Positions 16,521 to 35,369 of a stretch of 64,000 nt of DNA are shown one piece after another. The DNA comes from Isoetes taiwanensis (Eukaryota > Streptophyta > Lycopodiopsida > Isoetales > Isoetaceae). The stretch is from the NCBI GenBank assembly GCA_021234155.1, contig JAJEKV010000002.1, positions 40,227,841 through 40,291,840 of the forward strand, read 5' to 3'. Every line of letters starts with the position of its first letter. Position 1 is the stretch's first letter. A program made the translations under genes and the position numbers. The notes below the pieces were generated by a model. The model searched no databases. It was not told where the DNA came from and saw nothing but the letters and a program-made list of their open reading frames with translations.

Positions 16521-16729
16521 CTCTCTCTCTCTCTCTCTCTCTCTCTCTCTCTCTCTCTCTCTCTCTCTCTCTCTCTCTCTCTCTCTCTCTCTCTCTCTCT
16601 CTCTCTCTCTCTCTCTCTCTCTCTCTCTCTCTCTCTCTCTCTCTCTCTCTCTCTCTCTCTCTCTCTCTCTCTCTCTCTCTCTCTCTCTCTCTCTCTCTCT
16701 CTCTCTCTCTCTCTCTCTCTCTCTCTCTC
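16521..16729 (+). repeat. (CT)n tract 1, 209 bases
   Basis: This is a pure CT dinucleotide run. It separates family X on the left from the 5'-truncated LINE copy A on the right. The G that follows begins the LINE coding sequence. Confidence 0.97.
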
Positions 16730-16730
16730 G

Positions 16731-17938
16731 GTCATCTTTGCTCGCTCCTCGGAGTGTATGCAGCGACATTTGGATGGGCTGGCCCGCTTTTGTGATGCAT
16801 CCGGGATGCAAGTAAATCTGGAAAAAACAAATGTTATGACAGTAGGGGCTTTTTAAGGTGGGTGACCTCTTTTAGATACAAGAACAATCCGGTAAGTATT
16901 TGTGATTCTTATAAATACTTAGGGCTGATTTTCCATAGAAACCACAGATGGAATGCGTGCATTGCCCAAAGAGTAGATGGGAGCCACAAGGCTCTTTATG
17001 CCATGCAGAGCTTATGCAGAGAGGCACATTTATGGTCATGGCAACTCAAAAGAAACCTGTTTGAATCGTTAGTACAGAGTGTGGCATTGTATGGAAGTGA
17101 GATTTGGGGACCTACTCTTCCACAAGGCTTATGGGATGATCTTGAACAGATTTTGAAGAAGTTCATAAGGCTCGAATTGGGGGTTAAATCACAAACTCCC
17201 TACCCAATGATGTTAGCAGAATGCGGCCTGCTTCCTCTAGAAGGAGAGGCCATGATACGGTGTATCCAATTTCTGAAAAAAGTGCTTCAAATGGATAACA
17301 CTAGGCTCCCATGCAAAGCTCTTAATGCTAGTAAGGAAAAAGGTTGGTTTCATGATGTGGTATGCTGGCTTGGCAGATGGGACATCCAATGGCAAGAGGC
17401 AATAATAGTAGATGGGGATTTAAGGCAATGGATTCGCGACAAGGTCCAAAGGAAAATGTGGTCCCAGCCTAAAACAAAGATGATCCTATACAGGCAACAC
17501 ATGAATCCAAGTCTGGCAGCGGCTACTTATCTAAAAGATAATATCTCGATAAAAAAAAGACATACACTTGGCAGGATTCGCCTTAGTTCGCACCACTTGG
17601 GTGTGGAAACAGGTAGATGGGGGCATATAGTTCCGAGATCAGAGAGATGGTGCAAAGTTTGTGGGGAAGAAGAAGTGGAAGATGAAACTCATACACTACT
17701 TAAATGTGGGGCTTACCATTTACTACGGGTCCAACATGGTATATTAGCTGATGATCTCCAAAGCTTTTTCCTATTGGAAGGAGAGAAAACTAGTGCCTAC
17801 TTGATAGAACTTTTACAATATAGAGGGATTTGTTTAAAAAGATTGAATAGTCTTCTTGATGAAGAAGACACATTTAGTGAGAGTGACGAGCAAGATGAGG
17901 ATTCTGAGACTCATCTGCTCTTTTATGATTGTACCTAA
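16731..17938 (+). pseudogene. LINE copy A ORF2 remnant (RT C-terminus, zinc-finger tail)
   Basis: The frame opens with VIFARS, the residues that follow the catalytic Asp pair in related copies. It passes the motif MQVNLEKTN (RT motif D region), then has a frameshift near 16850. The rest is one 358-codon frame (16862-17938) with YKYLGLIF (motif E), ALYGSEIWGP and AECGLLPLE. A CCHC-like finger follows near residue 265 (CKVCGEEEVEDETHTLLKC). The last ~25 residues are acidic. This region binds the element's RNA in LINE proteins generally. Without the catalytic core it cannot be active. Confidence 0.85.
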
Positions 17939-17950
17939 AAAATTGGGTTT

Positions 17951-17980
17951 GTCTTTAGGCCTTTTAGGCCTCCCAAGGAC
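17951..17980 (+). promoter_or_regulatory. LINE 3' UTR two-stem hairpin, copy A
   Basis: The inner stem is AGGCCT (17957-17962) with AGGCCT (17966-17971). The outer stem is GTCTTT (17951-17956) with AAGGAC (17975-17980), including one wobble pair. The bases differ from copies B-E but the pairing is preserved. It is probably the recognition site for the reverse transcriptase. Confidence 0.65.
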
Positions 17981-17995
17981 TCAATACACACTTCA

Positions 17996-31874: not shown

Positions 31875-34800
31875 ACCATCAGGAAGTTGGGGAATAAAGA
31901 CCATCAGGTTATGCGAGTGGAACATCAATGGGAAAGTAGAAGAGGTTGCATTTCTCAACGATGTTCTCGAATCTTGGGATGTTGTGTTTTTACTTGAGAC
32001 ACACGAGCATGAAGAACATGGTTTACCAGAATTTCACAGATTTACCTTAATGCGGCATAAGAAAAACTGGAGGAGGAAAGGCTTTAGAGGAATAGCATGC
32101 TACATTTGTAGCAACATCAAACATATGTTTTCTATAGCTAAGAAGAATTCTGTAAAGGAACATATTTGGCTAAAAGTTGCAGGTTCACATAGAAATATTT
32201 ATATAGCTGGCTGTTACTATCCACCTAGAGAGTCCCCCACTTATATGGTGGGAGAGATGGATAAAGATGACCCTTTCCACCATCTGGAACAGGATGTGCT
32301 GGATCTAGGGAGACATGGAGATATCCTTTTAATGGGAGATTTTAATGCCAGAATCGCTAATGAGCAAGCTTATTTAATGGCCGGAACAGGAGATCCCATA
32401 TGGATGGAAAAACTAGATGAGGCGGACTTGCAGGCAAATGGATGAGATAGAGCCACAAAGGACCAATCAAAAGATTTGCAGCCACAAGGTATGCATCTTT
32501 TGAATATGTGTAGCGGCTTAGACTTAATTGTACTGAATGGTATCAGTAAATTTCCTCAATCAAAGAAATGTACATCTAAAGGCGTTATGGGAATTGGATT
32601 CAGTGTTGTTGATCTGGTTATGACAGGGATTCATATTGTGGATAGCATTAGTGACTTGAGTATCGATGATGGCATACCAACCTCTGATCACTTCCCAATT
32701 GTGGTGCATTTAAGACTTCAGGACCAGGGTGTTATAAACACACCTAACCCAAAAACACAAACTAGGATAAACATGGATCCACGTAAGATGAGTATCTTTA
32801 AGAAGATGTGTGAGCAAAATGCTAAGGAGCTTACATGGCCAGAGAACTTAGTAGAATTGGACACGATGCTTACCTCTATGTTACTTGAGGTGGCTCAGAA
32901 ATGCTTCATACCTCGTCGTGCATTGAAAGGATTGCTATGTAATGGGTGGTATGACACGGAATGTAAAAGTAAGAGGCTGGAATTTAAGACTGCAACACAG
33001 AAAGATGAAGGCAAGGTTCAGAAGGAATATCGACAATTAGTGAGAAGGAAAAAACGAGCATACTACCAAACCAAACAGGAAACACTGGTAAGTGAATTGT
33101 TATCACAGCCAAAGAAATTCTGGACAAGGTTGAAGGCCAGAAAACAACAGACTAGTCTTTTAGATGTGGATAGTTTATTACAACAACTGCATAAACTATA
33201 TCACGTAGCGGGATTGCATGAGGAAATGGACAGACAAGGTGATAATCTCACTTTTTCAGATGCAGATATATTTGAAGGGCTGGAATCACTTTCGTGTGGC
33301 AAGGCAGCTGATGCACTTGGGTTGATGGCAGAGATGATAAAATGGGCTGGTCCAGCTGTAACCAGTGTCATCACGAAAATGATGAATAGAGCGTTGATTG
33401 AAGGCTTCCCTCACACATGGCAAGTCAATAGAGTGGTACCAATCCATAAAGCAGGAGACATCAGCGACCCAAGCAACTATAGAATGATCATGGTAAGCAG
33501 TTTGTTTTCAAAATTATTTGCCAAGCTTATAGAGATAAAGTTAAGTGATTGGGCAGAGATACACAATGATAGAGCATCGGGACAAGCAGGTTTTAGACCT
33601 AACAGGTCTACACTAGACCACTTAATTACTATGAGAGCAATGACAGATGCTGTGAAGAAAACTAAAAAGCCGCTCTTTGCTTGCTTTGTGGATCTTACTA
33701 AAGCTTTCGATATGCTAAGAAGAGGGAACATTTGGGAATACATGGATCACATAGGGGTGCCACAGGAGCTCAGAAACGCAGTATCAGTACTATATGAGAA
33801 AGTGCTAGTAAGTCTATCTTTTCCGCTAAACAAATCCTGTAAAGCAGAGATAATTAGTAACATTGGGGTGAAGCAAGGATGCCCTTTATCCCCTACATTA
33901 TTTGGGATATATATAGACCAGTTAGAGATGTGGATGCAGAGACATAGTGGAGGGGGGACTACACTTGCAGGATACTTGCTTATTCTACTCTTATATGTAG
34001 ATGATATTGTTATCCTTGCTCAGAGTTACCACGATATGCAGAGGCACTTGGAGGCATTAGCCAATTTCTGTGATGCTACTAAAATGCAGGTGAATTTGAA
34101 TAAGACTAAAATTCTCATTTTTGGAAAACGAGTTCATAATTTCCATTTCCAATATAAGGGAGAAGAGGTGGAAATAGCAGACACATATAAATATTTAGGG
34201 CTTATAGTGGACCACAATTATGGGTGGAACAAGGTAGTTGGGCAGCGTACTGATGTTGGGATTAAGGCGCTATACGCAATGCAGCAGAAATGCAGAAAAG
34301 CAGGGACTGTAGACTGGAAACTGAAGAAAATGTTATATCAAAACCTCGTCAGGACAGTTGCGTTGTACGGATGTGAGGTTTGGGGGGCCGGGCTCTCCCA
34401 AGAAATATGGAAAAGAGTTGAGAAAATTCAAAAGAAATTTCTTCTGGCAGAACTAGGGGTTAAAATGCAAATCCCATATCATATGATGTTGGCTGAAACA
34501 GGGATGGAATGTTAGAAGCTGAAGCATTATTTCTGACGCTCAAATATGTGCAAAAGGTCCATGATATGGATGCTGATAGGCTATCGAGGCTTGCAATGAT
34601 ACATAGTAGTCTTAAGGGATGGTATAATGAAGTGCGTAAATGGTTGGGTAAGTGGGGAATGGTGCTAGAAGATATGCCATCAGAGGAGGATGAGCTAAGG
34701 GAATGGGTCTACGCACATATCAGAGAAAAATCCTGGCATAATGCAGGCACGAAAATGGCATTTTACAAAAAAGAAATTAATCCAGCACTTGGAAAAGCAC

Positions 34801-35197
34801 CGCATCTCTTGGGTAAGCTGTCTTACTTTAAAAGACATTTATTTGCAGACTAAGATTAAGTTCACATCACTTGGGAGTGGAGGTTGGTAGATGGGGGAAT
34901 CTCCCCCGAAACTTACGTACCTGTAAAACATGTGGAGCTGATGTACTGGAGGATGAGGCACACCTTATTCTTCGCTGTCCTACATATGAAAATTTAAGGA
35001 GACGGATGGGTATTCCTACCGGGATCTCTTTATATGAGTTCTTTGCGCTGCCAGCTGCAACTATCAGTGACTACTTGATAGAGGTGATGAAAGTGAGGGA
35101 CATGTCAATAAGAAACTATAAACACCTACTAGAATTATATGAGAAAGAGAGTAGTGGGACTAATGATGCCGTGATTGAGGGTACATTAGAGTTTTAA
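31875..35197 (+). pseudogene. LINE copy E ORF2: endonuclease and reverse transcriptase, one stop and two frameshifts
   Basis: The frame enters directly from ORF1 and reads CEWNING, VVFLLETHEHE, GCYYPP, LMGDFNAR, VVDLVM and SDHFPI. A TGA at 32443-32445 sits where copy C has Trp. RT motifs are NRVVPIHKAG, GQAGFRPNRS, FVDLTKAFD, GVKQGCPLSPTLFG, LLYVDDIVIL (Val replacing the usual Ala in the YADD motif), VNLNKTKILIFG and TYKYLGLIVD. A small deletion shifts frame near 34505, and another shift lies near 34853. The finger is CKTCGADVLEDEAHLILRC. Apart from these breaks the protein is complete. Confidence 0.9.
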
Positions 35198-35225
35198 TTA
35201 TATGCAAAAAAACTGACTTGTATAT

Positions 35226-35255
35226 CGTCTTCTAGGCCTGATGGTCTCATAGACG
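35226..35255 (+). promoter_or_regulatory. LINE 3' UTR two-stem hairpin, copy E
   Basis: The outer stem is CGTCT (35226-35230) with AGACG (35251-35255). The inner stem is AGGCC (35234-35238) with GGTCT (35243-35247), where the A-to-G change gives a G-U wobble instead of a mismatch. The loop is TGAT. Confidence 0.7.
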
Positions 35256-35280
35256 TGATCTATAAAACATTTCATTTCAT

Positions 35281-35369
35281 CTCTCTCTCTCTCTCTCTCT
35301 CTCTCTCTCTCTCTCTCTCTCTCTCTCTCTCTCTCTCTCTCTCTCTCTCTCTCTCTCTCTCTCTCTCTC
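35281..35369 (+). repeat. (CT)n tract 6, 89 bases
   Basis: This pure CT run follows the 3' tail of LINE copy E. It is followed by a short spacer and then by tract 7. Confidence 0.97.

What the first reader, a model, noticed from the sequence alone, without database searches (positions are those of the whole stretch)
16521..35369. Head-to-tail array of five LINEs, each bounded by (CT)n microsatellites: a plant LINE that appears to target CT repeats
Seen directly: five LINE copies in one orientation, with (CT)n of 89-209 bases at every 5' and 3' junction, always CT on the LINE sense strand. Two copies are 5'-truncated and still join (CT)n cleanly, so the association does not depend on full-length structure. 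Known: some animal LINEs insert into microsatellites (I recall Tx1-clade elements such as Kibi and Koshi, and R4-clade Dong in TAA repeats). I know of no described plant family of this kind. Inferred: sequence-specific target-primed integration into (GA/CT)n.
Basis: partly seen in the sequence, partly recalled or inferred. Interest (0 to 1): 0.92.

Follow-up and report, generated by a model that had tools for sequence, protein, structure and literature searches.

The report
Plant jumping genes that target CT repeats
In a quillwort-like plant genome, one lineage of LINE jumping genes sits mostly in runs of CTCTCT, always facing the same way and often nose to tail, whereas two other LINE families examined in the same genome do not, which points to a rare plant example of a mobile element that aims at simple repeats.

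Summary
In detail: five LINE copies lie head to tail, each bounded by (CT)n. They are not copies of one block: ORF2 identity is 42-61% with saturated synonymous sites. Of 65 copies found with copy E ORF2, 58 show the conserved 3' hairpin; 48 of these have a pure CT run of 8 or more within 75 nt; none of 59 has GA there. CT tracts lie in 24 of 34 5' flanks, 12 of them just behind another element's 3' hairpin. 5'-truncated copies also start at CT. Controls: 0 of 12 plant-L1 loci and 0 of 18 3' flanks of a related LINE family with the same hairpin have such tracts. One copy seems to duplicate about 100 nt of target with both ends in CT. CT-bounded SINEs occur. Best reading: APE-type LINEs priming at GA/CT repeats, a new variant of a known kind. 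Nicking is inferred; empty sites and Tx1 membership are untested.

The parts
16521..16729 (+). (CT)n, 5' junction of copy A
16730..17995 (+). LINE copy A, 5'-truncated late in the RT; most divergent lineage
17996..18145 (+). (CT)n with CCCTCT interruptions, between A and B
18146..21491 (+). LINE copy B, 5'-truncated, starts at the EN domain
   Evidence: PF03372 and PF00078
21454..21467 (+). core of the 3' hairpin of copy B (AGACC-TGAT-GGTCT; A and D have variants of it)
21492..21666 (+). (CT)n between B and C
21667..26213 (+). LINE copy C, full length, ORF1 ATG directly after CT; frames broken
26214..26330 (+). (CT)n between C and D
26331..30867 (+). LINE copy D, full length, ORF1 ATG directly after CT; frames broken
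30868..30960 (+). (CT)n between D and E
30961..35279 (+). LINE copy E, full length, frames broken; a piece of its ORF2 was the genome-search query
   Evidence: PF00078
35280..35369 (+). (CT)n at the 3' end of E
35370..35522 (+). 32-base spacer GTTAGGCACAT...ATCTCTCGT followed by a second (CT)n; the spacer resembles the start of the Harbinger-like element at 35523

Best explanation
A diverse lineage of APE-type LINEs in this lycophyte genome inserts into CT/GA repeats in one orientation. Shown: most sampled copies, of several subfamilies, have their 3' end at (CT)n on the sense strand; 5'-truncated copies also start at CT; two other LINE families of the genome do not. Inferred: the endonuclease nicks the GA strand inside a CT/GA run; the freed (GA)n 3' end primes reverse transcription at the RNA's 3' end, which carries a conserved two-storey hairpin, an A/T-rich spacer and a short slippage tail such as (TTTCA)n. 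The second cut also falls in CT, so the target duplication is normally hidden in the repeat. Because each copy ends in a CT tract, the next LINE or SINE can land behind it, and head-to-tail arrays form. Full-length copies have almost no 5' UTR, so the upstream CT tract, or read-through from the element in front, may supply the leader and perhaps the promoter (a guess).
For: Census: 65 distinct copies by my count of 68 matches (65 of 50987 first-look candidates were scored); 3' regions of all 65 were fetched. 58 have the hairpin by a strict pattern, 48 of these pure CT of 8 or more within 75 nt. Of the 7 without it, L003, L067, L073 and L079 show a CT tract in the fetched 3' region. Orientation: with a looser pattern 49 of 59 have CT, 0 have GA. 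5' flanks: 24 of 34 with CT of 12 or more, 0 with GA. 5'-truncated copies with CT abutting, or within about 50 nt of, LINE coding sequence, read by eye: L007, L008, L021, L023, L119, L120, L121, L124, L127, L129, and window A and B. Controls: 0 of 12 plant-L1 loci, 0 of 18 related-family 3' flanks. The window copies diverged under purifying selection: pS 0.76-0.85, pN 0.25-0.40. Hairpin covariation over 43 chosen rows, -11.9 kcal/mol against a mean of -0.04 for 100 column-shuffled alignments. Probable long target duplication with both ends in CT: L122/L065.
Against: 10 of the 58 copies with a hairpin have no pure CT run of 8: impure or short CT (L002, L070, L074), merely pyrimidine-rich (L014, L023, L082), abutting another LINE (L024) or a SINE (L026), or neither (L028, L058). 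L031, L033 and L068 were not resolved. 10 of 34 5' flanks show no CT of 12; whether they reach the element's start was not settled. No empty site was seen: the paralogue search did not complete. The census was seeded by copy E (53-100% identity, one fragment 49%), so lineages A, C and D are represented by the window copies alone. No endonuclease assay exists. Control 5' flanks: 10 of 10 without CT or GA of 8, but at least five of these are still inside the LINE. The L122/L065 duplication lies in a MITE-like repeat that also occurs elsewhere (L021, L124), so two adjacent copies of that repeat are not strictly excluded.
Confidence: 0.87

Rival explanations
1. The LINE makes the CT tract itself: (CT)n is the element's own 3' tail, grown by slippage in reverse transcription, as proposed for RTE elements of Lepidoptera, and the tract at the 5' end is the tail of the element in front.
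For: The elements carry slippage-like tails of other units just before the CT. 12 of the 24 CT-bearing 5' flanks have another element's 3' hairpin within 85 nt before the tract. At the L122/L065 site a native run of 5-6 bases stands against 18 bases of CT at the 3' junction. A generator mechanism is published for Lepidoptera (PMC2887409, abstract read).
Against: In the other 12 of 24 no such hairpin was found, and at L021, L124 and L129 the CT before a late-starting copy follows MITE-like or other DNA. A tail alone does not explain why the next element lands in it. The related family with the same hairpin has slippage tails but no CT.
Confidence: 0.09
2. Arrays of CT and LINEs are safe-haven leftovers: LINEs insert at random and only survive in CT-rich heterochromatin.
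For: Arrays are common, and other elements (SINEs, Harbinger-like ends) also border CT.
Against: Junctions at a near-constant distance from the hairpin, a single orientation (49 CT and 0 GA of 59), CT also at copies 90-95% identical to E such as L004-L007, and 0 of 12 and 0 of 18 in control LINE families of the same genome.
Confidence: 0.02
3. The block is one segmental or tandem duplication, or an assembly artefact at a microsatellite.
For: Five similar elements in a row separated by the same repeat; microsatellites are hard to assemble.
Against: 63-73% DNA identity between copies over alignments of 70 bases or more, saturated synonymous sites, and CT junctions on many separate contigs.
Confidence: 0.02

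Closest known systems
Kibi (and Koshi), Tx1-clade LINEs of pufferfish (Kojima and Fujiwara 2004; target and clade recalled, paper not held; PMC6515669 passages only mention KibiFr1 in connection with Takifugu)
   Same: APE-type endonuclease LINE; from recall, Kibi targets TC microsatellites, i.e. the same repeat
   Different: Animal; Tx1 membership of the present element not testable here; here there are CT-bounded SINEs, head-to-tail arrays of anciently diverged lineages and a related non-CT family with the same 3' hairpin
Togen, NeSL-related LINEs of fish, (TG)n-specific (PMC4640811, passages read)
   Same: Dinucleotide microsatellite as target
   Different: NeSL is counted in that paper among restriction-like-endonuclease clades; different repeat; here the endonuclease is APE-type
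R4-clade Dong in TAA repeats (target recalled)
   Same: Microsatellite target
   Different: R4 has a restriction-like endonuclease (PMC4640811 passages); here APE-type
Plant L1 clade with stringent 3' hairpin (Ohshima, PMC3747384, passages read)
   Same: A stem-loop near the 3' end with compensatory changes
   Different: Those L1s mostly end in poly(A), and no CT target is described in the passages read; in this genome 10 of 12 zf-RVT L1 loci end in poly(A)
Related LINE family of the same genome (P0013 family, L098-L115)
   Same: Same two-storey hairpin, GACGTTAAAATA-type spacer and slippage tail (CTTC)n or (TTCTA)n, in 17 of 18 by eye
   Different: Tail is followed by non-CT DNA; 0 of 18 with CT

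Membership tests
Microsatellite-targeting LINE | Most copies joined to one repeat type, in one orientation | tested here: met
   48 of 58 at CT; 49 with CT and 0 with GA of 59; census seeded by copy E only
Microsatellite-targeting LINE | Other LINE families of the genome not so joined | tested here: met
   0 of 12 L1 loci, 0 of 18 P0013-family 3' flanks
Microsatellite-targeting LINE | Empty site carries the repeat before insertion | not tested
   paralogue search did not complete (last attempts); one probable target duplication with both ends in CT
Tx1 clade | APE endonuclease plus RT | tested here: met
   PF03372 or PF14529 in copies B and C, PF00078 in B, C and E
Tx1 clade | RT groups with Tx1 elements | not testable with these tools
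   no Tx1 reference sequence at hand; RT tree groups copies B-E with green-plant sequences
R4/NeSL/R2 groups | Restriction-like endonuclease instead of APE | tested here: not met
   endonuclease of copies B and C matches the APE family
Plant L1 (zf-RVT type) | zf-RVT domain PF13966 and poly(A) tail | tested here: not met
   no PF13966 match in the ORF2 C-terminal pieces of A, B and C; tails are pyrimidine-rich repeats, not poly(A)
Stringent-type LINE (3' stem-loop) | Conserved 3' stem-loop with compensatory changes | tested here: met
   (rows were found by an inner-stem pattern, so the outer stem is the real test)
SINE partner of this LINE | SINE shares the LINE 3' end and target | tested here: inconclusive
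   CT target shared; the SINE end GACGTTAAAATA is at least as close to the non-CT related family

The most novel reading that the evidence does not exclude
The CT tracts are self-renewing landing pads: the LINE needs only a short CT seed (5-10 bases), lengthens it while priming, and thereby leaves a longer CT tract at its 3' end that recruits the next LINE or SINE, so that a whole community of anciently diverged LINEs and tRNA-derived SINEs builds, shares and stacks in its own microsatellite niche.
Probability: 0.35. Interest if true: 0.85.

Novelty: new variant of a known kind. Interest (0 to 1): 0.74.

Why it matters
Sequence-specific LINEs are, as far as I recall, known mainly from animals and protists. 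A plant lineage aimed at a dinucleotide repeat, next to a related family in the same genome that shares the 3' hairpin but not the target, gives a ready comparison for how target choice evolves in APE-type endonucleases. It also links LINE activity to the origin and spread of CT microsatellites, which plant biologists use as markers and which occur in plant promoters and 5' leaders (the last point from general knowledge).

Tried and rejected
Scans of viral contigs with copy E ORF2 and with two junction patterns found nothing. An ORF1 homologue search gave only 4 weak hits, so ORF1 flanks in other species could not be read. No translated CT repeat was found in the 124 relatives scanned. A first dN/dS run counted out-of-frame matches and was discarded; one search replaces it. 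A free-register stem count was too permissive and was replaced by the fixed alignment, in which copy A is misaligned. In one search the hairpin of L014 was picked at a wrong place; its true 3' end lacks CT and it stays a miss. An endonuclease sequence search in the PDB gave nothing useful. Rfam found nothing. Structure prediction was not run, as a fold would not bear on target choice. The test for empty paralogous sites (MITE-like flank as DNA query) and the census of the copy A lineage were asked repeatedly and never answered. For the 5' side, 20 of the 30 first loci were followed upstream; L010, L013, L014 and L018 also lacked an upstream CT tract of 10 or more and were not followed.
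Full report
What is there. The window holds five LINE copies in one orientation, separated and bounded by (CT)n of 90 to 209 bases. The tract between A and B is impure. Pfam finds an APE-type endonuclease in B and C (PF03372, PF14529) and reverse transcriptase in B, C and E (PF00078); A gave no match and D's ORF2 was not scanned. C and D begin with the ORF1 start codon directly after CT, and E four bases later. 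A and B are 5'-truncated. All five have broken frames.

Not one duplicated block. Pairwise DNA identity is 63-73% over alignments of 70 bases or more; short pieces of 25-67 bases reach 79-92%. ORF2 protein identity is 42-61%, synonymous differences are saturated (pS 0.76-0.85) and non-synonymous ones are not (pN 0.25-0.40). The copies are old, separately evolved lineages kept under protein selection, and each ends at CT.

A shared 3' end. All five end with a two-storey hairpin (in most, outer stem CGUCU/AGACG, inner stem AGACC/GGUCU, loop UGAU; A differs most), an A/T-rich spacer, in most a short repeat tail such as CATTTCATTTCAT, and then (CT)n. Over 43 chosen rows, seven of them from the related family, the hairpin gives -11.9 kcal/mol against a mean of -0.04 (lowest -1.73) for 100 column-shuffled alignments, with both-sided changes at several pairs. 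The genomic rows were found by an inner-stem pattern, so only the outer stem is an independent test.

The genome. The window is G000:C1018:40227841-40291840 in an assembly of 1,658,258,908 bases and 1110 contigs. The published Isoetes taiwanensis assembly has 1658.30 Mb in 204 scaffolds plus 909 contigs (PMC8566536, passages read), so the host is very probably that lycophyte; the small difference in contig number is unexplained. A piece that I read as a LOB-domain gene at 42999-43472 (motif recognised from memory) fits a land plant.

Census. A search with a piece of copy E ORF2 scored 65 of 50987 first-look candidates and reported 68 matches, which I count as 65 distinct copies on 47 contigs; two of them are E and B themselves. 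3' regions of all 65 were fetched. 58 have the hairpin by a strict pattern; 48 of these have a pure CT run of 8 or more within 75 nt, or 46 of 56 without B and E. Of the 7 without the pattern, L003, L067, L073 and L079 have a CT tract in the fetched region; L031, L033 and L068 were not resolved. The 10 misses are L002, L070, L074 (impure or short CT), L014, L023, L082 (pyrimidine-rich), L024 (abuts another LINE), L026 (abuts a SINE), L028 and L058 (neither). With a looser pattern on 63 of the 65 copies, 49 of the 59 with a hairpin have CT and 0 have GA. Where there is a tract, CT was thus always on the sense strand.

5' side. Upstream flanks were fetched for 20 of the first 30 loci and for 14 further copies with late match starts. 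24 of the 34 hold a CT tract of 12 or more and 0 hold GA; in 12 of the 24 another element's 3' hairpin lies within 85 nt before the tract. Ten late-starting copies have CT abutting, or within about 50 nt of, LINE coding sequence, read by eye (in L008 and L127 AT repeats lie between). The 10 flanks without CT may not reach the element's start; this was not settled.

Controls. Plant L1s found with PF13966 (12 loci of 150 matches listed): 0 of 12 have a CT or GA tract of 12 or more within 1.5 kb on either side, and 10 end in poly(A). The related P0013 family (18 of 72 scored copies): 0 of 18 have CT or GA of 8 or more in the 500 bases after the match, yet 17 of 18 show the hairpin by eye, and their tails (CTTC)n or (TTCTA)n run straight into other DNA; the exception is L100. 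Their 5' sides: 0 of 10 with CT or GA of 8, but at least five of these flanks are still LINE sequence. Background in the window: one long CT tract and one of 13 bases in 44.7 kb.

A revealing copy. The LINE at C1058:1352684-1354576 has nearly the same 100-nt stretch on both sides (5' flank L122, 3' flank L065); the stretch is CTCTC-rich but not a pure repeat, begins after a short CTCTC run and ends at a long CT-rich tract. This is the shape of a target-site duplication with both cuts in CT. The stretch belongs to a MITE-like repeat seen also at L021 and L124, so two neighbouring repeat copies are not strictly excluded. At the 3' junction the CT run is 18 bases, against 5-6 in the flank copy, so insertion or later slippage lengthened it.

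SINEs. Between CT tracts lie tRNA-headed SINEs: a full-length one (L010), truncated ones (L043, L055, L056), a second type (L029), and one directly joined to a LINE tail (L026). They share the CT target. Their 3' end resembles the P0013-family LINE at least as much as the CT LINE, so the partner is open.

Relationships. Of 286 protein hits (120 listed), the nearest are unnamed (42% identity); named ones come from Taxus (32-44%), Adiantum (31-37%), Klebsormidium (32%) and Chlorella (30%). In an RT tree copies B to E form one group (SH-aLRT 98) inside a larger group that holds the Taxus, Adiantum and Klebsormidium rows; human L1 and R2 lie far outside, with a long-branch warning. In a tree with the genomic copies, B to E and 31 genomic copies form one group (95), and copy A, with 21% of the columns, is unplaced. 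No Tx1 reference was at hand.

How it probably works. Target-primed reverse transcription at the GA strand of CT/GA runs is inferred from the junctions; neither nicking nor RNA was observed. In full-length copies a start codon follows CT within 0 to roughly 35 nt where I could read it, which suggests that the CT tract or read-through transcription provides the leader; that is a guess.

Literature. Searches bearing on plant or lycophyte microsatellite-targeted LINEs showed no such report among the rows listed; the lists are capped and subscription papers are not covered. Passages of two Isoetes genome papers (PMC8566536, PMC10541799) mention no CT-targeting LINE. Passages of PMC4640811 report (TG)n-specific Togen in fish and name the Tx1 and R1 clades as target-specific APE elements. 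That Kibi targets (TC)n is recalled. PMC2887409 (abstract) describes microsatellites generated by RTE elements, the main rival.

Noticed in passing
window 35523-38919: PIF/Harbinger-like element (DDE_Tnp_4 at 36703-37377) whose two ends (GTTAGGCACATG... and ...CATGTGGCCAACGAT) both lie against long CT tracts; similar ends next to CT appear at L004, L029, L064 and L074, while L079 has CA repeats. A DNA transposon may share the CT niche.
   Followed up: partly
L010:4309-4536, L043:526-713, L026, L029: tRNA-headed SINEs beside or between CT tracts, most with (TATC)n tails
   Followed up: partly
window 35370-35401: 32-base near-copy of the Harbinger-like end between two CT tracts, perhaps a small target duplication or unequal exchange
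   Followed up: no
window 39048-39150 and L081: The sequence after the LINE-free CT tract (GGCTT...GTATTCTCATTTGTTGTGTCATTATCTCTGG) also follows the CT of copy L081, so a further repeat family borders CT
   Followed up: no
window 55629-56012: RT fragment of another LINE lineage (closest P0013, 54%) next to sequence that reads like a Ty3/gypsy reverse transcriptase on the minus strand; no CT beside it
   Followed up: partly
window 42999-43472 (-): Reads like a LOB-domain (LBD) transcription factor exon (from memory)
   Followed up: no
window 1230-1523: Reads like an RRM exon of an RNA-binding protein (from memory)
   Followed up: no
L016:4422-4451: A roughly 30-base remnant that looks like a LINE 3' end between two CT tracts, an extreme 5' truncation
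   Followed up: no
L098-L115: Non-CT LINE family with the same hairpin and with tail units that differ, (CTTC)n or (TTCTA)n, between subfamilies
   Followed up: partly
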